Assembly (NCBI GenBank): GCA_913051775.1
Contig: CAJXCL010000015.1
Coordinates: forward strand, 1 to 38,888
Direction: 5' to 3'
Source of the DNA: an uncultured Nitrospirota bacterium
GTDB lineage: Bacteria; Nitrospinota; Nitrospinia; CAJXCL01
DNA: 38,888 nucleotides
Shown: positions 1,787 through 27,758 of the stretch, in pieces
How the letters are laid out: each line of letters begins with the position of its first letter
How positions within the stretch are numbered: position 1 is the stretch's first letter
Translations under genes and position numbers: made by a program
Notes under the pieces: model-generated
Database searches by the model: none
What the model was told of the DNA's origin: nothing
The model's input: only the letters and a program-made list of their open reading frames with translations

Positions 1787-2019
1787 AGATGAAAGATTTA
1801 GTTTTTATTTCTTGTGGTTTTGCGATGCTTTATTCTATAGCAAATCCTTTGGTTATTAAATACTGATCTTTATTGAAGCACCATGCTGCAAAGCTGAGCT
1901 TAGCTCTGCAAGCCGCATGGAATCTTCGGCAGAGAGTATAATTTTATTAAGTTTGCTTTCTAACCCCGCGTAAGCCCTGTTCCCGTAGGGTTCAGGACAA
2001 GCAGCAAGGAATGAGTTCG
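1787..2019. other. Intergenic gap with an open frame after the aldo/keto reductase stop
   Basis: No gene can be assigned firmly. In a different frame from the reductase, minus-strand codons from 2029 to the TAA at 1856-1858 are open for about 57 codons and read like protein (for example AYAGLESKLNKIILSAEDS), but there is no good start codon. It may be a frameshifted C-terminal tail, a decayed gene, or chance. Bases 1968-2008 also resemble, in reverse complement, the core of the intergenic repeat family described elsewhere (TGTCCT-AACCCT-CGGG). Confidence 0.35.
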
Positions 2020-4919: not shown

Positions 4920-4946
4920 ATTTTTATTTTTGATTATTTGTTTGTT

Positions 4947-5052
4947 TTGATATTAGCCACCCTTGGCCTCAACCCTTTAGGAGGCTTTCCATTGGGAAAA
5001 TGTCAAATTCGGCTCTCCTCGCCCCGAATTATGGTTGCGATCACTGGCCACA
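4947..5052 (+). repeat. Intergenic repeat family, copy C
   Basis: This stretch aligns with copies at 20574-20680 (plus) and 22659-22789 (minus). Shared landmarks in order are TTGAT, TGGCCT-AACCCTT--GG-GG, TTCC, CAATTCGG or AAATTCGG, GAATT-TGGTTGC and CTGG or GCTCC. The copies are clearly diverged. Here it ends about 17 bp before the ATG of the cyclase pseudogene and has the same orientation. Its role is unknown. Confidence 0.65.
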
Positions 5053-5068
5053 CCGTTGAAATCTTTGT

Positions 5069-5463
5069 ATGAGCAATATTACAACAGATTTATTAGAAAA
5101 ACATCTGGAAAGCCTGGAGCAGTTCAATGAAAATATCCTTCAAAGCATAACTTCCAGTTTATTAGTGGTGGACAATTAAAACTATATTATTCGAAAAATT
5201 CAATAAATCCATGAAAATTAATACCGGTGAAGCTGTTACAGGAAATATTGGTTTAGAAAAAAGGATGGCCTCTACTTTTATCGGAGATGTTGTTAATTTT
5301 GCCGATCGCGTTCAGTCTCAATCTAAAGCTGGAGAAATTCTGATTTTCGACTCTACGTTTAGGAAGGTCATAAAGAAAATAGCTGTAAAAAAGTTAATAC
5401 CGCATTATTTGAAAGGGAAACAAAAAGAGGTTGAGCTTTACAGGATACAGGGGGTCATATAAA
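5069..5463 (+). pseudogene. Decayed PAS-domain class III adenylate/guanylate cyclase
   Basis: The 5' piece starts at ATG 5069 and reads as a coiled linker plus the beginning of a PAS domain (EQFNENILQSITSSLLVVDN) before an in-frame TAA at 5177-5179. Reading on, with a frameshift near 5200, gives NYIIRK then FNKSM, as in a PAS domain, and then abruptly the last part of a class III cyclase: KINTGEAVTGNIG, STFIGDVVNFADRV and ELYRIQGV. The whole core between PAS and the GNIG motif, including the metal-binding aspartates, is missing. So there is one nonsense mutation, one frame change and one large internal deletion. The 83-codon 3' frame (5211-5462) is unlikely to be a working protein. The parent was probably a sensor making cAMP or cGMP. 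Confidence 0.85.
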
Positions 5464-5494
5464 AAAAGACTTGAAATATCGTCAGTCATAATAC

Positions 5495-5719
5495 TTAATT
5501 TAAATCATCCGGTTCATCAGGAACAGTTTCATCTAAAAATTCATCGGGAATAGAATCTTCATCTTCTTTTTTGTCTAATAAATCTTCTTCGTAACTGATT
5601 TCATTGTAAAAGCCATCATTCAACCCGGCAGAAATACAATCCCCACATAAATTCATAGTAGCCCCACCTACGAGAGGTTGATACTTGGTACCACACTCGG
5701 AGCACCTCAGCAAACCCAT
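5495..5719 (-). CDS. Small zinc-ribbon protein with acidic tail
   Basis: A 74-residue protein. The first 28 residues hold two CxxC knuckles (Cys6/Cys9 and Cys25/Cys28) around a GG-containing turn, as expected for a zinc ribbon; the rest is low-complexity and very acidic (EEDLLDKKEDEDSIPDEF). I do not recognise a named family. It could be a regulatory or RNA/protein-binding accessory factor, but nothing in the sequence settles that. It is on the minus strand, converging on the cyclase pseudogene and about 105 bp downstream of the amidase gene. GATTCT-type bases and a possible AGGAGATTC ribosome site precede the ATG. Confidence 0.7.
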   Translation of the reverse strand: MGLLRCSECGTKYQPLVGGATMNLCGDCISAGLNDGFYNEISYEEDLLDKKEDEDSIPDEFLDETVPDEPDDLN

Positions 5720-5822
5720 TTTTTAGAATCTCCTAAAAAAGAAAATCTCAACCTTTAAATTACAAATAAAACTCAATGACCAAAAAAATATACATTAAAA
5801 TTTTCTGCTATTATTTCTACTA

Positions 5823-7079
5823 CTATTTTGTTTTTAAAGCAACCTGCATTTCTCTAAAATATTTTTCAATCCCTTCTAAAATGAAATAGGCCAGCCTTTC
5901 CCTGTACTTGCTTGATCTGAGTCTCTTCCCTTCTATAGGATTGCTAACAAACGATGTTTCCACTAAAACACTGGGCATATTGGCTCCGTGCAGCACATAA
6001 AAAGGTCCACCCTTTGCGCCTAAATCTTTTACCCTCTTGAATTTTTTTCTCATACCCTGGATTAAGTTATTTTGAACAATTCCAGCTAATTGGCTTGAGT
6101 CATTCATTTTCGTATTGGCTACCATATCCGCCAGAATATATTGGACATCATCAATATTAGAACGCGGGACTTTATTTTCCCTCGCGGCAGTTTCTAATGC
6201 TCGATCGCTTTTAGCAAAATCAAGATAGTATGTTTCTATCCCTGAAGCATCTTTACGTTTGCTGGCATTTGCGTGAATTGAAATAAAAATATCGGCTTTA
6301 TTGCCGTTTGCAATCTCTGTTCTCTCCTGTAATGGAATGAATACATCATTATTACGGGTAAGAATGACTTTATAGTCCAATTTTTTTTTTATCAATTTTT
6401 TTAATTTAAGAGCAATGTCAAGAACCACATCTTTTTCTAAAAGTCCCTTTATTCCTTTTGCGCCACGATCCTTACCCCCATGCCCGGGATCAATAACAAT
6501 GATCTTTTTTGCTATTATCCGGTTGGGCACCCGTGAGTTATCGAACGAAGATAGTTCATTAAGTCTTTCAACCGCCAACTTATACATATCTCCCTTTGAA
6601 AATTTCGTAGTTATTTTTGTATAAGCTTTTTTTGCTTTATAATATTTCCTTAAGTCATAAAAATATATATCACCAGTACGGAATAATGCATCATCTGCCA
6701 GGCTGCTGCTTGAATATTTCTTGACAACCATACTATAGTGTTGGATAGACGAGTTCAGGTCTTTCCTCATGCCAAACTTTTTAAAGGAATCATAGTAAAG
6801 CATTCCAGCAGTGAAAAGAGCGTCATCAGCAAATGAACTGCTGGGAAAGCGCCGGGAAACCGAGAGAAACTTATTTATATTTTTTGTCCAGCCGGATTTA
6901 ATCGCTTGTTTTCTCTTGGAGCCTTTTAAGGAGTAATAGTCGTTCCTGGCGTTATTATATAGAGTTTCCGCCGTTTCTTTTGCATAGGCTAAGGATGGAA
7001 AATATGAAAGAGAAAAGAAAAATATTATGAAAACTATAAAAGAAAAAGCAGCATTAACCATAGAATGAAAATATAGCAT
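5823..7079 (-). CDS. N-acetylmuramoyl-L-alanine amidase (Amidase_3) with N-terminal TPR-like region
   Basis: A periplasmic enzyme that cuts the amide bond between N-acetylmuramic acid and the stem peptide of peptidoglycan, as in daughter-cell separation. Of 418 residues, the first 33 form a signal peptide with a probable AYA cleavage site. Residues about 35-175 contain two repeats of the form FADDALFxxGxxYYD, typical of the YbgF/BamD type of TPR. The catalytic domain follows: zinc ligands His200 (VIDPGHGGKD), Glu215 and His269 (SIHANAS), and catalytic Glu374 (VLVETSFVSNP). The AMIN domain of E. coli AmiC is replaced by TPR-like repeats, suggesting a different way of being placed or activated. 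Met7 is an alternative start. Confidence 0.93.
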   Translation of the reverse strand: MLYFHSMVNAAFSFIVFIIFFFSLSYFPSLAYAKETAETLYNNARNDYYSLKGSKRKQAIKSGWTKNINKFLSVSRRFPSSSFADDALFTAGMLYYDSFKKFGMRKDLNSSIQHYSMVVKKYSSSSLADDALFRTGDIYFYDLRKYYKAKKAYTKITTKFSKGDMYKLAVERLNELSSFDNSRVPNRIIAKKIIVIDPGHGGKDRGAKGIKGLLEKDVVLDIALKLKKLIKKKLDYKVILTRNNDVFIPLQERTEIANGNKADIFISIHANASKRKDASGIETYYLDFAKSDRALETAARENKVPRSNIDDVQYILADMVANTKMNDSSQLAGIVQNNLIQGMRKKFKRVKDLGAKGGPFYVLHGANMPSVLVETSFVSNPIEGKRLRSSKYRERLAYFILEGIEKYFREMQVALKTK

Positions 7080-7284
7080 TCATTATAAATAAGTCAAGAT
7101 GCAGTAAAGATCAATTATTGGTCACTCGTTTCAAGGTTAGTGTTCAGCAGTCAGCTATAAGAGGTCAACAAGAGATGATAAAGCAACAATTATAAGTAAG
7201 AATATTTTCTGCAAATGAATACCCATGTTTTTATATTTTCCTGTTGCAGCAGAAAGCTGACAACTGATGGGTGAACGTTTATCC
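7080..7284. other. Intergenic, no gene seen
   Basis: About 205 bp between the amidase and the thioredoxin gene. Short inverted words GTCAGCT (7148-7154 region) and AGCTGAC (7256-7262 region) are present about 100 bp apart, but no ORF or convincing promoter stands out. Confidence 0.4.
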
Positions 7285-7908
7285 TTACGTTTTGCGGATT
7301 AAATACTCGAAAGTTTCAATCGTTTGAGCCCCGAACCAATTACGGGCACCTACAACTCGAGTTAATATACGGCCTGACTTATCAATAATAAAAGAAGATG
7401 GAAGCGCATTAACCATATAAATCCTCTGGATTCGTCCATCCGGTGAAAGAAGAATCGGAAATGTAAGTTCCAGTTCTTTGACAAATGGTTTAACAACTGG
7501 TTCTCCCTGACGGTCGATACTGACTGCAAGTATGACAAGATCTTCTTTTTTAAATTTACGGTAAAGCTTTTCCATGTCCGGCATTTCAATTCGGCACGGA
7601 CCACACCATGTTGCCCATATATTCAAAAATACTACTTTGCCTCTGAATTGAGAAAGGGAAACAGGTTTGCCATTCATATCAGAAAAAGTAAAATCAGGAG
7701 CCATAAATCCTTCTTGAGGAGCAATTTCTTCAGATAACGGTTTTGCTTGCTTTACATTATTGTTCCCGGATGACTGGTTTTTTGCGGATTCATATTTGGA
7801 AAAGAAAGCAAGCACATTTTCGTGCTTCATAAAGAAACCGCTGACAAGTAAAAATAATGTAAAAGCGCCAAATGAATAAAAAACAACTCTATATCGGGAA
7901 TTTAACAT
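7285..7908 (-). CDS. Membrane-anchored TlpA/ResA-like thiol-disulfide oxidoreductase
   Basis: A 207-residue protein with one N-terminal membrane segment (about residues 8-26) that should leave the rest in the periplasm, then a low-complexity linker and an AhpC/TSA-like thioredoxin fold. The active site WCGPC lies at residues 101-105 and a cis-proline loop (NALPSSFIID) is present. ResA/CcmG/TlpA proteins reduce the CxxCH cysteines of apocytochrome c before heme is attached. Its place directly downstream of ccmA-ccmB-ccmC on the same strand supports that role, so it may serve as the CcmG-equivalent; ccmE, ccmF and ccmH are not in this window. A hairpin and a possible repeat remnant occupy the 66-bp gap in front of it. 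Confidence 0.9.
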   Translation of the reverse strand: MLNSRYRVVFYSFGAFTLFLLVSGFFMKHENVLAFFSKYESAKNQSSGNNNVKQAKPLSEEIAPQEGFMAPDFTFSDMNGKPVSLSQFRGKVVFLNIWATWCGPCRIEMPDMEKLYRKFKKEDLVILAVSIDRQGEPVVKPFVKELELTFPILLSPDGRIQRIYMVNALPSSFIIDKSGRILTRVVGARNWFGAQTIETFEYLIRKT

Positions 7909-7916
7909 AGCTTATT

Positions 7917-7965
7917 CCATAATGCGGCCAAGAGGCCGAAACCGAATAGGGCTTCCGCCCAGTAC
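7917..7965 (-). repeat. Possible remnant of the intergenic repeat family (copy F) with a GGCC hairpin
   Basis: In reverse complement this stretch reads ATTCGGTTTCGGCC, then TCTT, GGCCGCATTATGG, resembling the ATTCGG...GAATTATGG part of copy C. CGGCC-TCTT-GGCCG at about 7924-7938 forms a perfect short hairpin. It lies just upstream of the thioredoxin gene and has the same orientation. The match is weak. Confidence 0.3.
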
Positions 7966-7974
7966 ACTTCCCTT

Positions 7975-8781
7975 TTACGTGCGGCAGCGGCTAAGATTTG
8001 CTTCAAGGGAATCGACGTGAAGCCTTATAATATACATAGCGGCAAATACAATTAAAAACGCAATTATAGATACCTCTAGGGTCAGCATCATTTCAGGAGC
8101 CAGGCCTGAATTTTTTCCACCGTCTGTTACCACCGGGTGCATAATCTTTCCCCACAGCTTTATTGAATAATGAACAAGGGGAACGTCAATAAAGCCGATA
8201 ATTCCGTATACCGAAGCATAACGCGCTGTGGTAACAGGATTTTCCATTACATGCCGCAAGATCAAGTAGCCGACATAAATAACCAGAAGAACCAGCGCCA
8301 AAGTCAGACGGGGTTCCCATATCCACCATGCTCCCCACCTCTGTTTTCCCCAAATCATACCTGTTATGATCATGAGAGCGCAAAAATGAACACCCAGGTC
8401 GGCGCCCACTTTTGCCCATCTGTCAAAACGCAGGTCCCGTTTCCACAAATACAGTATGCTGCCTGCAAAGGTGATAAAAAAACCGACGTAAGACATAAAA
8501 GCAGCCGCCACATGGAAATAAATAATACGGTATGTAGCAGGCTCTCCCTTTGCGTCCGGTGACCAGATAAGAGCCATGTAAAGGGCAACTGAAATGAAAA
8601 GAAGAGCAAACCCGATTAAGCAGAGCCGCGCTTTGGAGCTGTCTAATTTGGATATCGACTTTTGATCGTTGCTCAAACATCCGGCCTCTTTCACAAGACG
8701 TCCACATTTCAAGTTTACCCGCACTATATACCCGATCATTATAAGGAGTAAAAATCCATAAGCGGACAAAAGATAACTCAT
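7975..8781 (-). CDS. ccmC: Heme exporter CcmC with fused N-terminal CcmD-like segment
   Basis: CcmC is the inner-membrane WWD-domain protein that, with CcmA, CcmB and CcmD, loads heme onto CcmE for cytochrome c maturation (System I). In this 268-residue protein residues about 52-255 match CcmC: six membrane segments, His90 (IIYFHVAAAFMSYV), the tryptophan motif WGAWWIWEPRLT at 149-160, and His204 (VPLVHYSIKLW). Residues 1-33 (MSYLLSAYGFLLLIMIGYIV, then a basic stretch) look like a complete CcmD, a protein normally encoded separately after ccmC. There is no internal Met that could start CcmC alone before residue 69. The start is preceded by GAGGAG and sits 1 nt after the ccmB stop. The fusion is my inference from pattern. 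Confidence 0.9.
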   Translation of the reverse strand: MSYLLSAYGFLLLIMIGYIVRVNLKCGRLVKEAGCLSNDQKSISKLDSSKARLCLIGFALLFISVALYMALIWSPDAKGEPATYRIIYFHVAAAFMSYVGFFITFAGSILYLWKRDLRFDRWAKVGADLGVHFCALMIITGMIWGKQRWGAWWIWEPRLTLALVLLVIYVGYLILRHVMENPVTTARYASVYGIIGFIDVPLVHYSIKLWGKIMHPVVTDGGKNSGLAPEMMLTLEVSIIAFLIVFAAMYIIRLHVDSLEANLSRCRT

Positions 8782-8782
8782 A

Positions 8783-9460
8783 TTACTCCTCTAAAGTATA
8801 TTCAAAAATCAAAAATGAGACTGATATGAATATAATATCAAAGGCTATGAGCAGTTTCAACCATGACATAATGTCCGCTATTTGTTTTCCATACAATAAA
8901 GCCCCGGTGGATTGCACTGCCGCGATGACAACCGGCAAAATCAGTGGATATAAGAGAACGGGCAACATGTATCTTAATTTTGCTGAAGCGGCGGACATTG
9001 CAGAAAGTAATGTTCCGCATGCCGTAAACCCCAATGTTCCCAAAAATGTGATAAGAACTATTCCTGGTATGTTTTGAATAGGCAAATTAAAAAAAACGAT
9101 AAAAACGGGAAAGATAAATATTTCCATAATGGTCATAAAGATAAAATTACCGGTCATTTTACCGAAGTAAATTGCGCTTCGGTCTATTGGCATGGACATA
9201 ATCCCAAAAATGCAATCGTTTTCTTTTTCATTTAAAAAGGAGCGGTTCAAACCAATAGTTCCGGCAAATATAATTGCTATCCACAAAACTCCCGGGGCAA
9301 CATCAATGGCTTTTACTTTGCCAAGGTGAATGGAGAAAATAAAAATAATCAATATTAGAACCGCCAGCATGAACATAGAGATCAACATTTCCCTTGTTCT
9401 GAATTCAGACAGGGTATCTTTCCACACAATGGCACTAACATCTTTAAAGTATTTTTTCAT
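8783..9460 (-). CDS. ccmB: Heme exporter permease CcmB
   Basis: The membrane subunit of the CcmAB(CD) ABC complex, which uses ATP hydrolysis to release heme-loaded CcmE. I chose the ATG at 9460 (MKKYFKDVSAIVWKD), giving 225 residues, the usual CcmB length, and starting 4 nt after the ccmA stop codon. The frame is open back to an ATG at 9505, but that would overlap the end of ccmA by 41 nt. Features seen: an amphipathic N-terminus ending in KDTLSEFRTREM, six hydrophobic segments, and the GLNRSFLNEKENDCI segment typical of CcmB/ABC-2 permeases. It is tightly coupled to ccmA and ccmC and should be translated with them. Confidence 0.93.
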   Translation of the reverse strand: MKKYFKDVSAIVWKDTLSEFRTREMLISMFMLAVLILIIFIFSIHLGKVKAIDVAPGVLWIAIIFAGTIGLNRSFLNEKENDCIFGIMSMPIDRSAIYFGKMTGNFIFMTIMEIFIFPVFIVFFNLPIQNIPGIVLITFLGTLGFTACGTLLSAMSAASAKLRYMLPVLLYPLILPVVIAAVQSTGALLYGKQIADIMSWLKLLIAFDIIFISVSFLIFEYTLEE

Positions 9461-9464
9461 AAAT

Positions 9465-10184
9465 CTATTTCCGCTTTTCCACACAATCAAAGTAGATCTG
9501 TTCAAACTCTTCCGAAATGATCTCAGGTACAGGTTTTTGAAAAACTATTTTTCCGAAAGCCATAATAATAACTTGATCGCTAACTTCTAAACCCTGTTTT
9601 AAATTGTGAGTGGTCATGATTATTGTGTTTTTAGCTGTATGTAACTTTTTAAGTATGCCCGTTAAAATTTTTGTTGCATGTTGATCAAGGCCTGTATAAG
9701 GTTCGTCCAGAAAAATAATAGACGGGTTATTCAACATGGCTCTTGCAATAGCAAGCCTTTGCTGCATACCTCTTGAAAAGGTACGCACCGGATCCCGGCG
9801 CCTTTGAGACAAGTCCACTTCATTCAATAATTCTTCGATACGGGTTTCCAAGTTGGATAAACCATGCAGTTTTCCATAGAACTTGAGGTTTTCATAGGGA
9901 GTAAGATTATTATAGGAAAATGTATTATGGGATATTAGACCTATCTTACTGCGAATTTTTTCCCCTCCTTCCGCAACATCAATCCCATTGACAAATGCAT
10001 TCCCCGAAGAAGTCTTGATTAAAGTGGAGAGGATTTTGATTAGTGTGGTTTTACCGGCTCCGTTGGGCCCAAAAATCGTGAGAAAACTACCATAAGGTAC
10101 TTTTAAATTTATTTCATTCAACGCGTCGATATGGCCGAATGAACGTTTCAGTTTTTTTGTTTCTATAGCCCACCTGTTCTCCAT
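9465..10184 (-). CDS. ccmA: Heme exporter ATPase CcmA
   Basis: The ATP-binding subunit of the Ccm heme-handling complex. The 239-residue protein has Walker A GPNGAGKTT, Q-loop region ISHNTFSYNNLT, ABC signature FSRGMQQRLAIARA, Walker B SIIFLDEPYTGLD and a switch histidine in MTTHNL. The sequence alone is that of a generic ABC ATPase; the assignment to CcmA comes from the adjoining ccmB and ccmC. It is the first gene of the ccmA-ccmB-ccmDC-tlpA run on the minus strand, and about 145 bp separate it from secF. Confidence 0.92.
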   Translation of the reverse strand: MENRWAIETKKLKRSFGHIDALNEINLKVPYGSFLTIFGPNGAGKTTLIKILSTLIKTSSGNAFVNGIDVAEGGEKIRSKIGLISHNTFSYNNLTPYENLKFYGKLHGLSNLETRIEELLNEVDLSQRRRDPVRTFSRGMQQRLAIARAMLNNPSIIFLDEPYTGLDQHATKILTGILKKLHTAKNTIIMTTHNLKQGLEVSDQVIIMAFGKIVFQKPVPEIISEEFEQIYFDCVEKRK

Positions 10185-10329
10185 TGTAAAACCATTTTAA
10201 AAAGTGATAATAACAAGCAATTGATTAAAGCACACAGGGATTAGAGCAAGTACGAGAGTTGAGGTTTAGAATATAATTATTATTTGGAGCTTGTCATTTA
10301 AGATTTATCTCTATTTTTATACTTCGCCA

Positions 10330-11232
10330 CTATCGCTTTCTCTGTTTTTGTTTTTCCCATACAAGCAATACAGGACTGGCAATGAATATAGATGAATACG
10401 TACCTACAAAAACACCAATCATAAGAGCAAACGAGAAATCATGGATAACCTCTCCCCCTAAGAAAAATAGTGCCAAAACCACAATAAGCGTCGTTAATGA
10501 AGTTAATATTGTTCTGCTTAAAGTCTGATTTATACTGAAATTGATAACATGTTCAAAATTTTTCTTTCTTATCTTTCTCAGGTTTTCTCTAATCCTGTCA
10601 AATACCACTATGGTATCGTTTAAAGAATATCCAACGATTGTTAAAAAAGCAGCTATAATGGGAAGGGAAAATTCCTTATCAAATAACAAAAAAAATGCGG
10701 TAGTAACCAGGATGTCGTGAATAAGCGCGATAATGGCAGCAACAGCAAAGCGGAACTCAAAACGCCAGGATATGTAAATAATAATCCCGATCAAAGCATA
10801 AAAAATGGACAGAATAGCCTTCTCTCTTAAATCACGACCGACTTTTGGGCCTACCATTTCCACACGAACGACCTCAAAACTTTCCGGAGCAAAATCTTTT
10901 TCAAGCTGACTTTTAACAGTCACATTAAAGTCTTCCAGAGCTTCCGAAAATCGCTCTGTATTGATCAGAATATCTCTATCAGAGCCAAATTGCTGTATGC
11001 TGCTACTTCCCATACCTAATTGGTGGAATGATACCCGAATTTTATCAATAGAGACCTTTTCTTTAAACTGAAGTTGGATTAAAGTGCCGCCAGAAAAATC
11101 AATACCAAGTTTCAAACCACCTTTTACAATAAACAAAATAAGACCGATTATTATAATAAAAAAAGATAAAAACATAGCCCACCTTTTTTTACCAACAAAA
11201 TCAATCGAGATGTCACTTTTTAAAATTTTCAT
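10330..11232 (-). CDS. secF: Protein translocase subunit SecF
   Basis: SecF works with SecD and YajC in the inner membrane, using the proton gradient to help proteins exit the Sec channel on the periplasmic side. The 300-residue protein shows the first membrane segment, the periplasmic-start motif GIDFSGGTLIQ (residues 43-53), a periplasmic domain of about 90 residues, then five membrane segments with the GYSLNDTIVVFDRIREN motif and a C-terminal TLSRTILTSLTTL segment. Usually secD lies immediately upstream; here the upstream 750 bp hold only a decayed lipoprotein gene and then lon, so secD must be elsewhere. The encoded protein looks complete. Confidence 0.95.
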   Translation of the reverse strand: MKILKSDISIDFVGKKRWAMFLSFFIIIIGLILFIVKGGLKLGIDFSGGTLIQLQFKEKVSIDKIRVSFHQLGMGSSSIQQFGSDRDILINTERFSEALEDFNVTVKSQLEKDFAPESFEVVRVEMVGPKVGRDLREKAILSIFYALIGIIIYISWRFEFRFAVAAIIALIHDILVTTAFFLLFDKEFSLPIIAAFLTIVGYSLNDTIVVFDRIRENLRKIRKKNFEHVINFSINQTLSRTILTSLTTLIVVLALFFLGGEVIHDFSFALMIGVFVGTYSSIFIASPVLLVWEKQKQRKR

Positions 11233-11400
11233 GTTGTATTCATTTGAATTTATTTGCTATACACTCATGATAGGAGGGTTAATATACCAGAAAATAGGTG
11301 GAGATTAAAGAAAATTTTGTGCGATAGGGGCTCTCTTTATCTTGAACAGCACGATGAAGGGAAAAGTGCGAATGAGCTCTTATGGCAATTGTTGTAGTAA

Positions 11401-11967
11401 TTAATACTTTCGAAGCATTTCTGTAGCAAAATCATTTCGGGCAATACTTTCCGAGGCAGAAGCAATTATTTCGCCTATCCTTATGTCGACAAAATTTAAG
11501 TTGACGTCCATATTTGCGCCAATGTCAATTATCCTGCCTGCAATTATAATTTCAATCTAAAGAGCATCTCCCAGTTCATTTAGAGTAGAAACCTCAAAAC
11601 TACTGAACCCAGTACGCAACCTATTCATTGCAACCAACAAATCTAGCTCTTGGAGTCAGCTTGAAATATTCATTTTTAGAAATTTCATTAGCTCTTTTTA
11701 AACTGATGTATCGGCCTAATTCCGAGACTTTGTCTGTGTGATCTACTAAATTCAAAACTGCAACTTTATTGATTATAAAATTTTAACTTTCTTCTTCTCT
11801 TTCTATTTGGTCTATCAAATGATTTACCATAGAGCGGGCCTTTTTTTCGTAGTAGCGTGTATTTGTTTTTGAATCGAATATTTTTTTTAACTATCAGAAG
11901 GTGAAGAAAAAGTGCCGCAGCCTTATAACAATAGAACAAATACCCACAAGATAAATATTTTTTTCAT
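11401..11967 (-). pseudogene. Decayed FlgO-like outer-membrane lipoprotein
   Basis: On the minus strand an ATG at 11967 begins a signal sequence (MKKIFILWVFVLLL) that hits TAA just before a lipobox-like GCG. The frame then continues through further stops and two frame changes but remains readable: YYEKKARSMVNHLIDQIE, KVAVLNLVDHTDKVSELGRY, NEISKNEYFKLTPRARF, then in another frame MNRLRTGFSSFEVST, NELGDAL, stop, IEIIIAGRIIDIGANMDV, LNFVDIRIGEIIASASES and a final TAA at 11401. This is the FlgO-type domain architecture (VAVL-x-VSELGRY and later IDIGANMDVN). At least four nonsense codons make it non-functional. Orthologues would be envelope lipoproteins, some linked to flagella. Confidence 0.85.
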
Positions 11968-11979
11968 TTTTACATTCCT

Positions 11980-14415: not shown

Positions 14416-14428
14416 GGTTTTTTATGCT

Positions 14429-15691: not shown

Positions 15692-16311
15692 TTTTTCCTC
15701 TCCTTGCTGCTTGATGTTTTTGACATAGCATTTCTCGAAGAGATAACCTCATCCACAATTCCGTATTTTTTAGCATCCTCTCCGGACATAAAAAAATCTC
15801 TATCCGTATCAGATCTAATTTTTTTCAAAGGCTGTCCCGTATGCTCAGATAATATTTTGTCAAGAGTATCACGCATTCTTAGAATTTCCTTAGCATGGAT
15901 ATCTATATCAACGCTTTGACCCTGAAAGCCTCCGGAAGGTTGGTGTATCATAATTCGCGAGTTTGTAAGAGCAAATCGCTTCCCTTTTGTTCCGGCTGCA
16001 AGTAATAAAGCCCCCATGCTGGATGCTTGACCTATACAAATAGTCTGAATATCCGGTTTGACATACAACATTGTGTCATAAACAGCCATTCCGGATGTTA
16101 CAGTGCCACCCGGAGAGTTTATATAAATATAAATATCCTGTTCCGGTTCTTCAGCTTCTAAAAATAACAATTGGGCAATTATTAAATTTGCTATATGGTC
16201 ATCAATCGCGGATCCAAGAAAAATAATCCGATCTTTCAGCAGCCTTGAATAAATATCATAAGCACGTTCGCCACGACTTGTTTGCTCCACAACCATTGGT
16301 ATTAAAGTCAT
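15688..16311 (-). CDS. clpP: ClpP, proteolytic subunit of ClpXP
   Basis: The tetradecameric serine peptidase of ClpXP. At 207 residues it has the expected length, with catalytic Ser98 (GQASSMGA), His123 (IMIHQPSGG) and Asp172 (DTDRDFF), and the oxyanion-region [12 protein letters not shown]. An N-terminal [13 protein letters not shown] segment, normally processed in some species, is present. It follows tig by 36 bp and precedes clpX with a 4-nt overlap, the widespread tig-clpP-clpX order. A GGGGGAAAAT stretch upstream could serve as a ribosome site. Confidence 0.98.
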
Positions 16312-16347
16312 TGTCTGATTTTCCCCCTTAAAATCATTTTAGCTTGA

Positions 16348-17652
16348 TTATGATGGAGTATCAAGTTCATTCCTATCAACTAAAACTTCTTTTATCGTTA
16401 GTTTGGACAATATAACATCCATGGTTTTTTTTCTTTGCAGTCCGTTCAAAAAGTTATTGTATGAATTATCTTTTTGCATGGAAACTCTTAACTTTTCTTT
16501 TGCCATTTTTTTCTCCGCCGCAATTTTTTCCAATTCCCTCTCAATTTCAGTTTTGTCTATTTCAATTTTTTCTATTTCTGAAATTTTTTGCCGAATCAAC
16601 TCTCCCTTAACAACCCTCACAGCATCCTCACTAAACTCCTCTCTTTCAATTTTCATACTGTCATCTTTCATTCCCCGGAGACGCATGTTATCTTTAAAAT
16701 CTTTAGCCATAAAATTGATCTGATCTTCAATAAGGACTTGAGGAATTTCAAAAGGATTCATTTCAATTAATTTATTTATGACATCCAGATAGAGAGTAGT
16801 ATCAGACATCGCTTCCCCTCTTTTCTCCTGATGCTGCCGTATTTCTTCCCTTAATTCAGCTACAGTTTTTTCTTTTCCCATCTCATTTTTTATAAACTCA
16901 TCGGTAATCTCAGAAAGTTTCTTGATTTTGATTTCATTGACTTTGACTTTAAAAAGCACCTTTTTATTAGCCAGATCTTTATTTGCATGGCTGGCTGGGT
17001 AAGTTACTGTAAACTCTTTTTCCACATTTTTATTCAAACCGATAAAGCCTTTTTCAAAATCCTCTAATAAATTGTTTGCCCCTATTATCAGGGAATAATT
17101 TTTTGTTTCTTCCTTCTGGACAGAGGAACCATCGACAAAACCCTTAAAATCCACAACAACAAGATCACCTTCCTTTGCCGGGCGGCTGGTTACCTCTTCA
17201 AAAGTAGCATATCGATTCTTTATATAGTCAAACTCTCTTTCTATATCTTCATCAGTAATTTTTGCAATCTTTTTTGTAAATTTCAATCCTTCATATTTTT
17301 TTATTTCAAAAGGAGGAATAATTTCTATGGTAGCCGAAAAAGTTATCGGTGAATTTTCTTCATGTTTAATATTTTCAAGCTTTGGAGAACCGACCGGTTT
17401 TAGATCTTTTTCTTCCACAGCCTTATAGTAAGCTTCCGGAATAATCTTATTAAGCACATCACCTTTGACACGGTCATGGTATAATTTTTTAAGGTAGCTT
17501 TTTGGGATTTTCCCTTTTCTAAAACCAGGAACTTTCACTTTTTTACCAAGTTCACGGTAGGCATCTTCCTCTTCCTGCGAGAATATTTCCAAAGGAATTT
17601 CTATCTTCAACTGCTTTGTGTAGGGGCCAATTTCTTTAATATCGATTTTCAT
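16348..17652 (-). CDS. tig: Trigger factor, ribosome-associated chaperone and prolyl isomerase
   Basis: Trigger factor binds ribosomal protein uL23 at the exit tunnel and shields nascent chains. I place the start at the ATG at 17652 (MKIDIKEIGPYTKQL), giving 434 residues; the frame stays open upstream only because it reads through the tRNA-Leu gene. Features: the ribosome-binding signature VPGFRKGKIP (about 55-64), the FKBP-like domain with EGDLVVVDFKGFVDG and GFIGL, and a charged helical C-terminal domain with FEIPQVLIE. It lies 23 bp downstream of the tRNA and 36 bp upstream of clpP, so all are probably in one transcript. Confidence 0.96.
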   Translation of the reverse strand: MKIDIKEIGPYTKQLKIEIPLEIFSQEEEDAYRELGKKVKVPGFRKGKIPKSYLKKLYHDRVKGDVLNKIIPEAYYKAVEEKDLKPVGSPKLENIKHEENSPITFSATIEIIPPFEIKKYEGLKFTKKIAKITDEDIEREFDYIKNRYATFEEVTSRPAKEGDLVVVDFKGFVDGSSVQKEETKNYSLIIGANNLLEDFEKGFIGLNKNVEKEFTVTYPASHANKDLANKKVLFKVKVNEIKIKKLSEITDEFIKNEMGKEKTVAELREEIRQHQEKRGEAMSDTTLYLDVINKLIEMNPFEIPQVLIEDQINFMAKDFKDNMRLRGMKDDSMKIEREEFSEDAVRVVKGELIRQKISEIEKIEIDKTEIERELEKIAAEKKMAKEKLRVSMQKDNSYNNFLNGLQRKKTMDVILSKLTIKEVLVDRNELDTPS

Positions 17653-17675
17653 TATGTCTCTTAATAAATTTTCAC

Positions 17676-17757
<82 letters not shown>

Positions 17758-17771
17758 CTTAAGGGTCTTTC

Positions 17772-17808
17772 ACTAAATATTTAGTTTAAAATAATTTCTC
17801 AAAGTCAA
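17772..17808 (-). promoter_or_regulatory. Candidate promoter and 14-bp palindrome upstream of tRNA-Leu/tig operon
   Basis: On the minus strand TTGACT (17808-17803) is a good -35 word, followed after 18-19 nt by the AT-rich CTAAATA, a poor -10. The latter lies in a perfect palindrome ACTAAATATTTAGT at 17772-17785, 17 bp before the tRNA. The palindrome could be an operator for the proteostasis operon or simply AT-rich chance. Confidence 0.35.
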
Positions 17809-17882
17809 TCGTCAGATTCGTACTTTAAAAGTTAATTTTACTTTTATCATTTTTACATTTCATTGTCAATTAACCGAATTTA

Positions 17883-17911
17883 TTGACCTCTTGAAATTTC
17901 TTTATTAGAAT
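17883..17911 (+). promoter_or_regulatory. Sigma70-type promoter for the SHOCT lipoprotein operon
   Basis: TTGACC at 17883-17888 and TAGAAT at 17906-17911 are separated by exactly 17 bp and sit about 43 bp upstream of the ATG at 17954 on the plus strand. They match the TTGACA/TATAAT consensus at 5 of 6 positions each. Confidence 0.55.
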
Positions 17912-17953
17912 TGATAAATTAAAATTTCATATAAAAATATTTATCGGATAGCA

Positions 17954-18811
17954 ATGTCATTTTTTTTCCATATAAATGATGAAAAAAAATTTGGGCTTCC
18001 TTTTTTCATTTCTTTTATTTTTATTTTGTTTCTTACAGCCTCATGCGCCTTTACCAAGTCAAGAGTTACCAAACAAACATTTAAAAAAGGGAAACAAATC
18101 GTAAGAATTGTTGAAAAAGATATAGATGCTCATTACCTTTCGAAAAAGAAATTGGAGCATCCTCACATCTTTGCAGAGGCAAAAATCTTTGATAACTTAA
18201 CATCCCTTAAGTATAAAAGACTTGCTTTACTCAGCAGAGAAGAAGACGTTTTTGACAAAAAATTAGCTAAGGAGATCAGTTCTCTTTTAGTAAATGCTTT
18301 CAAAAGAGCGAGTAAAAATGATTTTATTGAAGTTGATGCCAAGTCTCCTAAAGGCCGCATTTTAGGGGATGTTTTTATTTTTAAAAGAAAACTTAATTGG
18401 AAATTCAAAATTATTAATGGCGCTTCCTATGAAAGACGGAATTCAAAGGATTACCTCGACGGATGGAAAATTGTTCTCCAAAAAGGTCAAAAATATTATG
18501 GTAAAAAGGAACTATTTGGTGTCAGGGTAGCAAAGAACTGGATTATTTGTCCGGTTGATAAAACCTGGTCTAATGTTACCCTTCCCAGTAAAGGCGATCA
18601 AAAAGTAGACACCTATAATAAATTAAATGGTGAATCAGGCACGGATATTTTAGAAACTCTTCCAAAAGAGCAATCGAAAAAAGGCGTTTCTTCAACTCAG
18701 AAAGAAATTGAATCCAAATTCCTTCGACTGAAAAAACTTGTGCAAAAAGGACTCATTACAAAAGAAGAATATAAAGCCAAAAAACGGGAGCTACTGGAAG
18801 AATATTTTTAA
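17954..18811 (+). CDS. SHOCT-domain lipoprotein of unknown function
   Basis: A 285-residue protein with a hydrophobic signal (residues 13-30) ending in lipobox LTASC (Cys31), so it should be lipid-anchored in the envelope. Residues about 60-200 form an unrecognised soluble domain with LKYKRLALLSREED and a DGWKIVLQKGQKYYG stretch. The last 30 residues (LKKLVQKGLITKEEYKAKKR) form a SHOCT motif, a short C-terminal domain thought to mediate oligomerisation. It is the first gene after a good promoter and is followed 28 bp later by the ParB-like gene, suggesting one transcript. I cannot assign a function. Confidence 0.8.
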   Translation: MSFFFHINDEKKFGLPFFISFIFILFLTASCAFTKSRVTKQTFKKGKQIVRIVEKDIDAHYLSKKKLEHPHIFAEAKIFDNLTSLKYKRLALLSREEDVFDKKLAKEISSLLVNAFKRASKNDFIEVDAKSPKGRILGDVFIFKRKLNWKFKIINGASYERRNSKDYLDGWKIVLQKGQKYYGKKELFGVRVAKNWIICPVDKTWSNVTLPSKGDQKVDTYNKLNGESGTDILETLPKEQSKKGVSSTQKEIESKFLRLKKLVQKGLITKEEYKAKKRELLEEYF

Positions 18812-18838
18812 CTTGTAACCATACTACGTTTATTCTAC

Positions 18839-19843
18839 GTGTTGTACTCTTACGAAGAGATTAAAATTCAAAACATTAATTTGGCTAAAAGACCTTTCAG
18901 CTTTTCTTTCCCTGAATTTGATCAAAAACTATTTGATTCGATTTCAAGCATTGGTCTTGCGAACCCACCAATAATTTTACCTGCTTGCGTTAATAGCACA
19001 GATAAACAAAAAAAAAATACTAATAAATTTTATGTTGTATCTGGACTCAGAAGAATCCTGGCCTGTAAAAAATTAGGAATAAAGACCCTGCCATGTTCCA
19101 TTATTAAAGAAAATACATGGGATTGCGAAAAATTTATTCTTTTAAGCCTTAAAATCAACCTGTCACATAGAGAGTTCAATGATATTGAAAAAGCCAATCT
19201 TTTTAAGTTGCTCAAAGAATCAGGCATTCCTCAAAAAAAAATAATAAGAAAATATATGCCGTATCTCAACCTGGAAAAGAGCAGGAAAATCTACGAAGAT
19301 ATCATAAGTCTTTATTCACTGGATACTGTAAGCAAGATGAGAATTATCGAATGGAAACTTCCTTTAAATATTTCTGCAGTATTAGCAAGGTATCAGAAAT
19401 CCGATAGAGCTGCTGTAATGAAAATAGCTGAAATATTAAAACCAGGCATAAACCGTTTGAAGGAAATTATCATGTTTTTAGAAGAGATTGCTTTAATACA
19501 AAAGTGCTCCATATTAGATATTATTAAGCAATATCTCGTAAGCATGGTTAAAAATTCTACAATATGCAGAAAAGAACGAACAGAAATGGTAAGGCAAAAA
19601 TTAAAGGGACTAAGATATCCGCAACTGGCAAGAATGGAAAGGAAATGGAATAAATGCATAAAAGAACTTCATCTGCCACAGGATATAAAAATAATTCCAC
19701 CCCTTTCTTTTGAAGGAAAAAAGATAAAACTGGAAATTTCATTTTCTAATAAAGATACCTTGTCCCGTTCCCTGTCCAAATTTAATGGGACTTTAATGTC
19801 CGGTTCATTAGTGGAACTGATAAATTTAGTTAACGCAAAATAA
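18839..19843 (+). CDS. ParB-like nuclease-domain protein, orphan
   Basis: A 334-residue protein that starts with GTG. The N-terminal third resembles the ParB/Sulfiredoxin fold: LFDSISSIGLANPPIILP followed by YVVSGLRRILACKKLG (box II-like VxSGxRRxxA, residues 65-80) and TLPCSIIK. In chromosome-segregation ParB this box binds CTP. The middle region (FNDIEKANLFKLLKESGIPQKKI) recalls the helical DNA-binding part of ParB; the C-terminus is rich in Lys/Arg and unrecognised. No parA or parS-like site lies nearby, so it is probably not the main segregation ParB. Its TAA overlaps the ATG of the glycosyltransferase by 1 nt, implying translational coupling. Confidence 0.75.
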   Translation: MLYSYEEIKIQNINLAKRPFSFSFPEFDQKLFDSISSIGLANPPIILPACVNSTDKQKKNTNKFYVVSGLRRILACKKLGIKTLPCSIIKENTWDCEKFILLSLKINLSHREFNDIEKANLFKLLKESGIPQKKIIRKYMPYLNLEKSRKIYEDIISLYSLDTVSKMRIIEWKLPLNISAVLARYQKSDRAAVMKIAEILKPGINRLKEIIMFLEEIALIQKCSILDIIKQYLVSMVKNSTICRKERTEMVRQKLKGLRYPQLARMERKWNKCIKELHLPQDIKIIPPLSFEGKKIKLEISFSNKDTLSRSLSKFNGTLMSGSLVELINLVNAK

Positions 19844-20532
19844 TGAAACTCTCTGTTGTAATCCCAGTTTATAACGAAAAGGCAACTCTCGAAGAAATTG
19901 TAAGACGCGTTCAAGCTACTCCAATCGAAAAAGAAATAATTATCGTTGATGATGGTTCAACGGATGGCACAAACAAACTGTTAGAAAACATAGCGAAACC
20001 TTCAAGTAACAGTATTCGCATAATTCGTCATAAAACAAACAAAGGCAAAGGGGCTGCTATTATTCGTGGTTTGGAAGAAGTTAAAGGAGATTTAACTATT
20101 ATACAAGACGCAGATCTGGAATATGATCCCAATGATTATAAAACGCTTCTTGAGTTGTTCAAAAATGATCACGTTCAAGTAGTTTATGGTTCAAGAAATT
20201 TAAAAAAAAATGACCGTTCTTCTTTTGCTTTCTATTGGGGAGGCCGGCTTTTGAGCTGGATTACTAATATTATATATGGTTCTAATGTAACCGATGAAGC
20301 CACCGGTTATAAAGTTTTCAGAACATCTCTATTAAAAGATTTGGATTTAAAAAGCACCGGATTTGATTTTTGTCCGGAAGTTACTGCCAAAATTCTGCGG
20401 CGCAAAATCAAAATTTTTGAAGTTCCTATTTCTTACAATCCAAGACTCTGGCATGAAGGAAAAAAGATCAGGTGGATTGACGGCTTAATAGCCATTTGGG
20501 TTTTGGTCAAATACCGCTTTCAGCGTTTCTAA
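19843..20532 (+). CDS. GT2 family glycosyltransferase, polyprenyl-phosphate mannosyl/glucosyltransferase-like
   Basis: A 229-residue single-domain GT-A enzyme without membrane segments at the C-terminus. It shows the nucleotide-sugar binding start SVVIPVYNEKATLEEIV, the IIIVDDGSTDGT motif, the metal-binding QDADLEYDP (about residues 88-96) and the acceptor-side VTDEATGYKVFR. Relatives related to dolichyl-phosphate mannose synthase load a sugar onto a polyprenyl phosphate carrier at the inner face of the membrane. A GT39-like enzyme encoded 200 bp downstream would be a natural user of such a lipid-linked sugar. The sugar donor cannot be told from sequence. Confidence 0.9.
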   Translation: MKLSVVIPVYNEKATLEEIVRRVQATPIEKEIIIVDDGSTDGTNKLLENIAKPSSNSIRIIRHKTNKGKGAAIIRGLEEVKGDLTIIQDADLEYDPNDYKTLLELFKNDHVQVVYGSRNLKKNDRSSFAFYWGGRLLSWITNIIYGSNVTDEATGYKVFRTSLLKDLDLKSTGFDFCPEVTAKILRRKIKIFEVPISYNPRLWHEGKKIRWIDGLIAIWVLVKYRFQRF

Positions 20533-20573
20533 AAAAGCTTTTTGTACTGCAAATTTATAGAACTGTTATTTTA

Positions 20574-20680
20574 GCACAATTTTTGTTAGCAGCATCAGGG
20601 CGGTAGCCTATTTGATTAGCGGCCTTCCATGTCCTCAACCCTTCGGGCGGTTTTCCTTACCGAATTGTGGTCGTGGCTCC
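20574..20680 (+). repeat. Intergenic repeat family, copy B
   Basis: It aligns along its whole length with the reverse complement of 22659-22789: GCACAATTTT-GTTAG, GGG-GG-AGCC-ATTTGATT, CC-TCC, AACCCTTCGGGCGG, TTTTCCTTAC-GAATTGTGGT and GGCTCC or TGCTCC. AACCCTTCGGG can fold as a small UUCG-loop hairpin. It lies about 55 bp before the GT39/TPR gene and has the same orientation. The 3' flank to 20722 (TGCGCA, reversed) weakly mirrors the left end. Confidence 0.75.
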
Positions 20681-20735
20681 TTGGTCGCTTTACGTAAGAA
20701 AATTAATTTTGCGCAGTGTATTCTAAACAACTACT

Positions 20736-22511
20736 ATGACTTTAATTAAAGATAGGCGACAGGCAATTTTTCTAATTTTCCTATTTTTTTCAGCATTTAG
20801 TATCAGAATTATCTATCTATCAGAATTTCATCACAAAAATCCCTTATTTGACATTATCCCTTCTGCTTTCGATCACTCTAACTTTGACAAAGGAGCAATA
20901 AATTTCTCTAAAGGTGATCTATTAGCTCGAAGTTCAAACAATAGTTATGCTCCCTTATATAAATATTTTTTAGGAATAATATACCTGCTTTTCGGCAGAA
21001 GTTTTGATGTTATTTACTTAATACAGTTTTCCATGGGGTCTCTCTCCGCAATATTGATCTATTTAATTGCGAAAGAGCATTTCGGTTTTCGTGCCGGTGT
21101 AATAGCTTTTACAGGTTTTGCCTTTTACTCTCCTCAAATCATTTACGAAGGTATAATTCTGAGGGCTGCGTTTATATCTTTCTTTGGAGTATTATCATTT
21201 TACCTTTTATCCCGTTTAAAATTTTCTTTAAGTACAGCCAATTTGATAATTTCTGCTCTGGCCCTGTCATTATTCATTCAGGGTAGGCCTAATGTGATAC
21301 TTTGCCTCCCCTTTGTGTTTGTTTTTTTGCATAAAAACATTCGCTTTCTTAAACCGGAAGAACGAATCAGGTACTGGCTAACTTTTACGGTCACACTTTT
21401 ATTATCGTTTATACCATTACTTGTTCAATGTTACCTGGTTCATGACAAATTTGTTTTTTTTGATGCCAGCGGACCGCATACTTTTATTTCCGGGAATATT
21501 ATCTCTTACTCAGGGGTGGGGTTTGATCAGGCTATCGTTGAAAATTACAGAAGGAAAAATATATTAGGCTACTTATCTAATATCGATTTTTTGTTTCATC
21601 ATATTTTAAACGATTTCTCAGGGTTTATTAAATTATATCTTCGAAAGCTGTATTATTTTTTCAATGATTTTGAAGCGCCAACAAATATTTCTATTTATCT
21701 TTATCGAAAATTATCTGCTATTTTACCGCTCTTGTTAGGACATTTTTCTTTATACTCTTCTTTGGGGCTCATGGGATTATTGCTGGCAATAAAAAATAAA
21801 AAACAGACCTTTTTATTGTATTCTTATATCTTTTCATTATCCGTATCCGTGATAATTTTTCTCAATGAATCAAGATATCGTATTCCGGTTGTCCCGTACT
21901 TTATCATTTTCAGTTCATATACTATCCACTTAACTATTTCCTGGATATCTCAGAAGAAATTCAAAAATACTATTATAGCAGTATCCATAGCTATTACCCT
22001 TTTCACAGTTTTCCTTGAACCTAAAGCTAATGTGGTGGATCGAATCCGGGCGGAAGATTACAACAACATGGCAACAGCGTGGAAAGAAAAAGGTAATTTA
22101 GAAAAGGCTGTCAGCTATTTGGATAAGGCAATTGCTACTGATCCATTTTTTTCTTTTAGTTATTTTAATAAAGGACAGTATTTTTTAAAGAAACAGGACT
22201 GGGAAAATGCAATATTTTATTTTGAAAAAGCATTCTTTTTTAATAAGGGGCATATTGAATCAAAAAACAAATTAATGATTGCATTATTTGGTTTAGGAGA
22301 TCAATATTTAAAAAAGGAAAAGTATAAAAATGCTATTGGTATTTATTCAAAAATTCAAATGTTAGATTCGCAAAATATTGACGCATTACTTAATATGGGC
22401 GTCTGCTATGCATATATGGGGGAAGAAAGCGAGGCAAAAAAATTATTCGAGTCTATTTTGAAAATTGACCCGGATCATTCTGCAGCAAAAACCAATCTTG
22501 GTCTTTTATAA
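20736..22511 (+). CDS. GT39-like (PMT/ArnT fold) membrane glycosyltransferase with C-terminal TPR repeats
   Basis: A 591-residue protein. The first about 430 residues hold some ten hydrophobic segments in the pattern of the GT-C fold PMT_2 family, with acidic residues in the first periplasmic loop (FDIIPSAFDHSNFDKG) and the SSNNSYAPLYKYFLGIIY block. Such enzymes transfer sugars from polyprenyl-phosphate donors to protein or lipid acceptors on the periplasmic side. From about residue 440 the protein carries at least four TPR-type units (NNMATAWKEKGNLEKAVSYL, ENAIFYFEKAFFF, NAIGIYSKIQMLD, LLNMGVCYAYMGEE), probably a periplasmic protein-binding arm. It lies between two inverted copies of the repeat family. 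The activity is inferred from the fold only. Confidence 0.85.
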   Translation: MTLIKDRRQAIFLIFLFFSAFSIRIIYLSEFHHKNPLFDIIPSAFDHSNFDKGAINFSKGDLLARSSNNSYAPLYKYFLGIIYLLFGRSFDVIYLIQFSMGSLSAILIYLIAKEHFGFRAGVIAFTGFAFYSPQIIYEGIILRAAFISFFGVLSFYLLSRLKFSLSTANLIISALALSLFIQGRPNVILCLPFVFVFLHKNIRFLKPEERIRYWLTFTVTLLLSFIPLLVQCYLVHDKFVFFDASGPHTFISGNIISYSGVGFDQAIVENYRRKNILGYLSNIDFLFHHILNDFSGFIKLYLRKLYYFFNDFEAPTNISIYLYRKLSAILPLLLGHFSLYSSLGLMGLLLAIKNKKQTFLLYSYIFSLSVSVIIFLNESRYRIPVVPYFIIFSSYTIHLTISWISQKKFKNTIIAVSIAITLFTVFLEPKANVVDRIRAEDYNNMATAWKEKGNLEKAVSYLDKAIATDPFFSFSYFNKGQYFLKKQDWENAIFYFEKAFFFNKGHIESKNKLMIALFGLGDQYLKKEKYKNAIGIYSKIQMLDSQNIDALLNMGVCYAYMGEESEAKKLFESILKIDPDHSAAKTNLGLL

Positions 22512-22542
22512 TAAAAAATTAAATTCTATTGGACCAAAGATT

Positions 22543-22650
22543 TCAATTATCATTATTATCTTTTCCGTCATGACGCACCACTAAAAAGTAAAACGCAATT
22601 AAAGTTGCTATAGCCAATCCTAATTTTATGTAAATTTCTTGATAATCCAT
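22543..22650 (-). CDS. Possible 35-residue single-span membrane peptide
   Basis: An ATG at 22650 opens a minus-strand frame of 35 codons ending TGA. The peptide has a short polar start (MDYQEIYIKL), one clean membrane segment (GLAIATLIAFYFLVV), and a charged, Asn/Asp-rich tail (RHDGKDNNDN), the shape of a small inner-membrane protein. It begins 8 bp after repeat copy A with the same orientation. There is no clear ribosome site, so expression is uncertain. Confidence 0.4.
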   Translation of the reverse strand: MDYQEIYIKLGLAIATLIAFYFLVVRHDGKDNNDN

Positions 22651-22658
22651 AACTCAAC

Positions 22659-22789
22659 GGAGCAGCAACCACAATTCAGTAAGGAAAACCGAATTGGACG
22701 GATTCCGAAGGAAGGCCGCCCGAAGGGTTAAGGCCAGGGATGGACGAAATCAAATGGGCTGCCACCCGGTTTCCTAACGAAAATTGTGC
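22659..22789 (-). repeat. Intergenic repeat family, copy A
   Basis: Reverse complement alignment with copy B is strong (see copy B) and with copy C moderate. GGCC-TTAACCCTTCGGGC-GGCC inside it can fold as a hairpin. It lies between the GT39/TPR gene and lspA; with copy B it makes inverted repeats about 2 kb apart around the GT39/TPR gene. The 329-bp gap 22512-22840 holds this repeat and the small membrane ORF and nothing else I can see. Confidence 0.75.
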
Positions 22790-22840
22790 AGAGCTAATCT
22801 CAGCTTTGCTAAATTTTACAGATTTGCAATAGAGAGAGAT

Positions 22841-27693: not shown

Positions 27694-27694
27694 C

Positions 27695-27728: not shown

Positions 27729-27758
27729 AAACATAAATAAGGTGTAAAATCTTCTTTT

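What the first reader, a model, noticed from the sequence alone, without database searches (positions are those of the whole stretch)
4947..22789. A diverged intergenic repeat family often placed just upstream of and co-oriented with an ORF
Three long copies (4947-5052 plus, 20574-20680 plus, 22659-22789 minus) and four weaker pieces (1968-2008, 7917-7965, 27695-27728, 29904-29938) share AACCCTTCGGGCGG, AATTCGG, GAATT-TGGTTGC and CTGGCCAC words. Copies A, B, C and F each end within about 10-55 bp of an ORF start (22650, 20736, 5069, 7908) and point toward it. That would fit a mobile leader or promoter element, a structured RNA, or simply insertion preference. The sample is small, and pieces D, E and G do not show the rule.
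Basis: partly seen in the sequence, partly recalled or inferred. Interest (0 to 1): 0.7.

Follow-up and report, generated by a model that had tools for sequence, protein, structure and literature searches.

The report
Multi-hairpin mobile intergenic repeat family
A roughly 200-base repeat made of several DNA hairpins sits about 80 times in this Nitrospinota-phylum bacterium's genome, faces genes at random and in one case sits inside a repair gene, so it is best read as a small passive mobile element; its core recurs in unrelated bacteria, whereas a gene-control leader is not supported.

Summary
The repeat family is real and much larger than the window shows. One window copy used as a query found over 40 matches in the genome, and a profile finds 81 copies at E<1e-5. 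In the window there are two full-length copies, one copy truncated at its 5' end, one 3'-end fragment and one probable deletion derivative. The weak pieces at 1968-2008 and 29904-29938 are not members.

The claimed rule "just upstream of, and co-oriented with, an ORF" fails. Between tandem genes, 24 copies point with the genes and 25 against, and flanking-gene arrangements match background.

The element is a string of hairpins (H1, H2, H3, plus H4 at the 3' end), and the H1-H3 stems show compensatory changes. Copies lie mostly in intergenic DNA. One adds 47 in-frame residues to UvrC that relatives lack, and one lies inside a DUF1848 gene. The H2-H3 core recurs in 3 of 77 Nitrospinota genomes, 45 of 369 sampled from a Gammaproteobacteria MAG's class and 11 of 174 from a Jidaibacter MAG's order. 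In one genome it splits the T-loop of three tRNA-Leu 3'-end repeats.

Best explanation: a non-autonomous palindromic mobile repeat, working like REP/BIME elements, mobilising enzyme unknown. It does not meet the CGTC-REP definition and is not linked to RAYT transposases.

The parts
22637..22848 (-). full-length copy C of the composite element
   Evidence: Full-length profile positions 6-210, 146.7 bits, E=7e-45; R1 135 bits
22756..22767 (-). hairpin HB of copy C (GGGTGGCAGCCC), followed by the conserved TTTGATT
   Evidence: read from the sequence; other stems in other copies, e.g. GGAGC..GCTCC
22732..22745 (-). hairpin H1 of copy C (GTCC-ATCCCT-GGCC, loop with TCC)
   Evidence: alignment A2 and pair counts
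22696..22721 (-). hairpin H2 of copy C (GGGCGG ... CCGTCC)
22673..22695 (-). hairpin H3 of copy C (AATTCGGTTTTCCTTACTGAATT)
22650..22669 (-). position of 3' hairpin H4 (degenerate in this copy) and the 3' end GAGTTATGG
   Evidence: H4 stems of at least 5 bp in 32% of copies against 5.6% of shuffles
22787..22809 (-). small palindromic module GCAAAGCTGAGATTAGCTCTGCA inserted in the 5' part of copy C
   Evidence: inverted pair with 1888-1910, 96%; the same module interrupts H1 in at least four other copies
20531..20707 (+). full-length copy B with an internal deletion that fuses H2 and H3 (CGGTTTTCCTTACCG)
   Evidence: Full-length profile 9-214, 102.7 bits; R1 62 bits; the same fusion in a group of other copies
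4946..5065 (+). copy A, lacking the 5' part
   Evidence: Full-length profile 93-209, 71.6 bits; R1 98 bits
27694..27729 (-). 3'-end fragment (GGTTGCGGCCCCTGGCCAC)
   Evidence: Full-length profile 176-211, E=1.4e-4
7923..7967 (-). probable internally deleted derivative (HB, TTTCGGCC, 3' end)
   Evidence: R1 E=0.0027; full-length profile E=0.0017
1888..1910 (+). isolated copy of the small palindromic module (not the main element)

Best explanation
The family is a non-autonomous mobile DNA repeat, that is, a composite palindromic element that works like a REP/BIME or MITE. Shown: about 80 dispersed copies of up to about 205 bp; a string of hairpins whose stems (H1-H3) are kept by compensatory change; random orientation to genes; mostly intergenic location; insertion inside genes (in frame in uvrC, and inside a DUF1848 gene); internal-deletion and nested-palindrome variants; and a shared H2-H3 core in distant phyla, where it splits tRNA 3'-end repeats at the T-loop. 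Inferred: the hairpins of one DNA strand are the recognition sites of an enzyme supplied in trans, which copies or moves the element; most present copies are decaying remnants; any effect on neighbouring transcription (a terminator-like 5' hairpin, a structured 3' UTR) is incidental. Which enzyme moves it is unknown.
For: 81 copies at E<1e-5 in the 2.05 Mb genome. Gap types equal background and tandem orientation is 24 against 25. Stem covariation: 81 double-change cells against 31 in shuffles, 83% of cells paired against 25-51% when slid; cross-phylum set 37 against 9.5 and 94% paired. In the own UvrC there is a 47-residue element-encoded insert, where six of eight relatives have none and two have shorter unrelated linkers. 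A second copy lies inside a DUF1848 gene. A tRNA-Leu gene is followed by three 171-bp repeats of its 3' end, each with the core inserted at GGT^TCGAC of the T-loop; similar T-arm sites occur beside tRNA-Ser and tRNA-Gln genes. Inverted pairs and tandem arrays occur. Direct repeats of 5-7 bp at composite ends exceed permuted pairings (p=0.001), e.g. CGTTATG on both sides of the copy at G000:C1:10475.
Against: No mobilising gene was identified. The direct-repeat signal may partly reflect subfamilies: an earlier test with wider windows gave p=0.05 overall and p=0.0065 for repeats of 6 bp or more. No close relative is held, so empty orthologous intergenic sites could not be compared. Copies are 76-90% alike, so no recent movement is seen.
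Confidence: 0.75

Rival explanations
1. A cis-acting structured RNA leader or a portable promoter that controls the gene downstream.
For: Some copies are followed by TATAAT-like hexamers 17-18 bases after TTGCGG, noticed by eye and not tested.
Against: Across 79 copies the downstream gene is co-oriented no more often than chance, tandem 24 against 25. Copies also lie between convergent genes and inside genes. Partial pairs show 41 G-U against 75 A-C, no bias for an RNA strand. No Rfam family matches the element above its threshold.
Confidence: 0.06
2. A transcription punctuation element (terminator or mRNA-stabilising 3' hairpins), kept for that function.
For: The 5' hairpin HA is followed by a T-run in many copies, e.g. 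AGAAGCTTTTTTTTTGAGAAAGCTTTTTTTT. Strings of hairpins are natural RNase blocks, and REPs elsewhere were proposed to act this way (PMC3733652).
Against: No enrichment in convergent gaps or after gene ends in a fixed orientation. Two copies lie inside genes. The core in other phyla lacks HA. It may be a side effect rather than the reason for spread.
Confidence: 0.13
3. A REP/REPIN moved by a RAYT (Y1 HUH) transposase.
For: Hairpin architecture, inverted pairs and a conserved TTGA at the 5' edge of the core resemble single-strand transposition substrates.
Against: The own genome holds one Y1_Tnp remnant with stops and no element within 1.5 kb. A Gammaproteobacteria MAG with 23 copies and the Jidaibacter MAG have no Y1_Tnp match, while genomes without the element have up to 16. 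No core copy lies near 18 Y1_Tnp loci. The GTAG tag is absent.
Confidence: 0.1
4. A CsrB-like RNA on the opposite strand, because its hairpin loops carry GGA.
For: Reverse-strand loops read CAGGACG, CAGGGATG or AAGGAA in the aligned copies.
Against: No CsrA gene is found in the 96%-complete genome, though the same search rings in E. coli, B. subtilis and T. maritima. About 80 dispersed copies is unlike CsrB. No strand bias in pairing.
Confidence: 0.02

Closest known systems
CGTC-tagged REPs (Di Nocera et al. 2013, PMC3733652), including Rickettsia RPE-4/RPE-6 and Neisseria dRS3
   Same: Short stem-loops in tens to hundreds of dispersed copies, mostly intergenic with some inside genes including DNA-repair genes; no dedicated transposase; occurrence in several phyla including Rickettsiales; a CGTC next to a hairpin (CCGTCC before H3).
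   Different: Here CGTC lies inside the paired 3' arm of H2, the stem starts AA rather than AT, the tail is GTGG/GTC rather than CCA, and the unit is a fixed string of at least three different hairpins rather than one 8-9 bp stem.
GTAG REPs, BIMEs and REPINs with RAYT transposases (PMC3116915, PMC2817692)
   Same: Hairpin repeats, inverted pairs, composite organisation, compensatory changes in stems, random spread in extragenic space.
   Different: No GTAG tag and no association with RAYT genes by presence or proximity.
Rickettsia palindromic elements such as RPE-1
   Same: Insertion of a palindromic repeat into protein genes, here a 47-residue in-frame insert in uvrC and a copy inside a DUF1848 gene.
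   Different: Sequence relationship not shown; known here only through the description in PMC3733652.
RtT RNA (RF00391), the E. coli repeats that contain tRNA 3' ends (knowledge from memory)
   Same: A tRNA gene followed by tandem repeats carrying the tRNA 3' end, as at L240 and L191.
   Different: The Rfam match at L191 is below threshold (31.8 against 45 bits), so relationship is unproven.

Membership tests
CGTC-tagged REP | unpaired CGTC (or TGTC/CCTC) tag at one end of the stem-loop | tested here: not met
   CGTC is present but is the paired 3' arm of H2
CGTC-tagged REP | complementary A-T in first and second stem positions, stem of 8-9 bp | tested here: not met
   H3 begins A-U, A-U (AATT...AATT) rather than A then T
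CGTC-tagged REP | loop of 4-5 bases | tested here: inconclusive
   5 in Nitrospinia OFTM173 (GTCCT); 6-7 in most own-genome copies
CGTC-tagged REP | tail fitting CCA | tested here: not met
   GTGG or GTC follows H3
CGTC-tagged REP | dispersed, intergenic, no associated transposase | tested here: met
GTAG REP / REPIN | GTAG tetranucleotide at the foot of the hairpin | tested here: not met
   no conserved GTAG beside H1-H4
GTAG REP / REPIN | associated RAYT (Y1_Tnp) gene | tested here: not met
MITE | terminal inverted repeats of 15-30 bp | tested here: not met
   none seen between the 5' and 3' ends by inspection
MITE | target-site duplication | tested here: inconclusive
   5-7 bp direct repeats in some copies, p=0.001 by permutation, confounded by subfamilies
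cis-regulatory RNA leader | consistent orientation upstream of genes | tested here: not met
   24 against 25
CsrB-like sRNA | host encodes CsrA | tested here: not met

The most novel reading that the evidence does not exclude
A previously undescribed superfamily of transposase-less mobile hairpin strings, shared by Nitrospinota, Gammaproteobacteria and Alphaproteobacteria including Rickettsiales, whose core unit inserts at T^TCGA-like sites such as tRNA T-loop copies, with an unknown class of mobilising enzyme. In one Nitrospinota lineage it expanded into a larger composite that has invaded genes, in frame at least in uvrC.
Probability: 0.4. Interest if true: 0.65.

Novelty: new variant of a known kind. 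Interest (0 to 1): 0.5.

Why it matters
Palindromic repeats without a known transposase are a long-standing puzzle: the authors of the CGTC-REP survey state that those elements apparently lack a dedicated transposase (PMC3733652). Here a structurally defined core recurs in several phyla, with in-cis empty sites (tRNA T-loop repeats, uvrC homologues) that fix an insertion point in at least one genome. A covariance model for it can be run over complete genomes to look for a co-occurring enzyme, which makes the question of how such repeats move directly testable.

Tried and rejected
A CsrB-like reading was dropped when CsrA proved absent. RAYT mobilisation was tested by presence and proximity and not supported. 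RNAalifold on the first 25 own copies gave only 7 pairs, because own copies fall into subfamilies; structure became clear only with relatives. A G-U versus A-C test for strand gave no RNA signal. No exact-pattern match in viral contigs, and no blastn match to one G005 copy in plasmids or to one Gammaproteobacteria copy in phages. Two pattern hits (Paracoccaceae L137, Gemmatimonadetes L141) lack the hairpins and are chance. Rfam matches to sX4, RtT, Thr_leader and the like are below thresholds and mostly reflect neighbouring tRNAs. Literature searches by sequence words and by topic found no description of this element, in an open-licence library only.

Full report
What was checked. The three long copies named in the finding align well. 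A core model (R1) built from 25 copies scores them at 135, 98 and 62 bits. Used as a plain DNA query, the copy at 22640-22830 (-) finds more than 40 matches at 76-90% identity in its own genome of 2.05 Mb, and R1 finds 81 copies at E below 1e-5. A full-length profile of about 210 positions shows that the copies at 22637-22848 (-) and 20531-20707 (+) are full length, the one at 4946-5065 (+) lacks its 5' part, and 27694-27729 (-) is a 3'-end fragment; 7923-7967 (-) is a probable deletion derivative. The pieces at 1968-2008 and 29904-29938 are not significant.

The placement rule. ORFs were called on 731 kb of the genome around the copies. Of 79 copies scored, 24 lie between tandem genes pointing with them, 25 between tandem genes pointing against them, 19 between divergent and 11 between convergent genes; background gaps of at least 150 bp are 169 tandem, 65 divergent and 39 convergent, the same proportions. 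The rule is not supported.

Anatomy. Reading in the element's own direction, own-genome copies consist of a 5' hairpin HA with a following T-run, hairpin HB (GGGC-GGTA-GCCC or GGAGC-GGAA-GCTCC), TTTGATT, H1 (GGCC-ATCCAT-GGCC), the linker TCAACCCTTC, H2 (GGGCGG...CCGTCC), H3 (AATTCGG-TTTTCCTTA-CCGAATT), GTGGTTG, H4 (e.g. GCGGCA-ACT-TGCCGC, GCGGAG-CCT-CTCCGC) and CTTTATG. Some copies carry a nested 20-nt palindrome (CAAAGCTGAGCTTAGCTCTG) in H1 or HA, and a group including window copy B has H2 and H3 fused by a deletion between TTTCCTT repeats. On an alignment of 53 copies from the host and six other genomes, 83% of cells pair, against 25-51% when the partner is slid, with 81 double-change cells against 31 in shuffles. 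On a 22-copy set that is mostly from other genomes, 94% pair and there are 37 double changes against 9.5. H4 stems of five or more base pairs occur in 32% of copies against 5.6% in shuffled sequence. Partial pairs show 41 G-U against 75 A-C, so there is no sign that an RNA copy of the forward strand is what selection sees.

Distribution. An exact-pattern scan of 84,980 species genomes named the carriers: Nitrospinia OFTM173 and Nitrospinota NC_groundwater_1753 (the relatives G005 and G001), plus MAGs of Gammaproteobacteria, Alphaproteobacteria, Jidaibacter and Midichloriaceae (two other hits are chance). With the H2-H3 model R2, only 3 of 77 Nitrospinota genomes carry it (54 or more, 15-21 and 3 copies), the other 74 giving none at E of 1e-4. 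The Gammaproteobacteria MAG has 23 copies, 15 of 57 genomes of its order and 45 of 369 sampled from its class have at least one, and 11 of 174 genomes from the Jidaibacter MAG's order do. The host is placed in Nitrospinota by being in the same class as G001 and G005.

Insertion sites. In the host's UvrC the element adds 47 residues in frame; six of eight relatives have none there and two have shorter unrelated linkers. A second copy lies inside a DUF1848 gene. In one genome of the Gammaproteobacteria MAG's class, a tRNA-Leu gene is followed by three 171-bp repeats of its 3' end, each with the core placed between GGT and TCGAC of the T-loop. Elements beside tRNA-Ser and tRNA-Gln genes sit at similar T-arm sites in either orientation. 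In the host, 5-7 bp direct repeats at the composite's ends are more common than in permuted pairs (p = 0.001), though subfamily structure may contribute.

Mechanism. The pattern (dispersed copies, random orientation, mostly intergenic with rare insertions inside genes, conserved hairpins, deletion derivatives, inverted pairs, patchy occurrence across phyla) is that of a passively mobilised palindromic repeat. The enzyme is not known: CsrA is absent, so a CsrB role is unlikely; Y1 transposases neither track the element nor lie next to it. Steps shown: family, structure, placement, insertion relative to homologues. Steps inferred: movement in trans, role of hairpins as recognition sites, decay of old copies.

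Relation to known systems. The nearest described kind is the CGTC-tagged REP superfamily, which also lacks a transposase and also inserts in repair genes (PMC3733652). Its defining unpaired tag, A-T stem start and CCA tail are not met here, so the element is filed as a variant of the REP kind, not as a member of that family.

Noticed in passing
window 1888-1910; 22787-22809: A separate 20-23 nt palindrome (GCAAAGCTGAGCTTAGCTCTGCA) occurs on its own and nested inside several copies of the main element, as if it moves independently.
   Followed up: partly
   Followed up: no
L017, L024, L030 just upstream of the element: A third repeat of the form CCCCCTTAATAAAGGGGGATACAGGGGGTTGT sits directly 5' of several copies.
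   Followed up: no
L240 1340-1830 (-); L191 1150-1650: tRNA genes (Leu, Gln) followed by repeats of their 3' end, interrupted at the T-loop by the core element; the layout recalls E. coli RtT repeats.
   Followed up: partly
L125 8824-10776 (-) (G000:C8); L115 6417-7601 (+) (G000:C3): UvrC with a 47-residue element-derived in-frame insert, and a DUF1848 gene that also contains the element.
   Followed up: yes
window 5069-5179 and 5211-5462 (+): Two short ORFs just after copy A look like pieces of a broken PAS/adenylate-cyclase-type gene.
   Followed up: no
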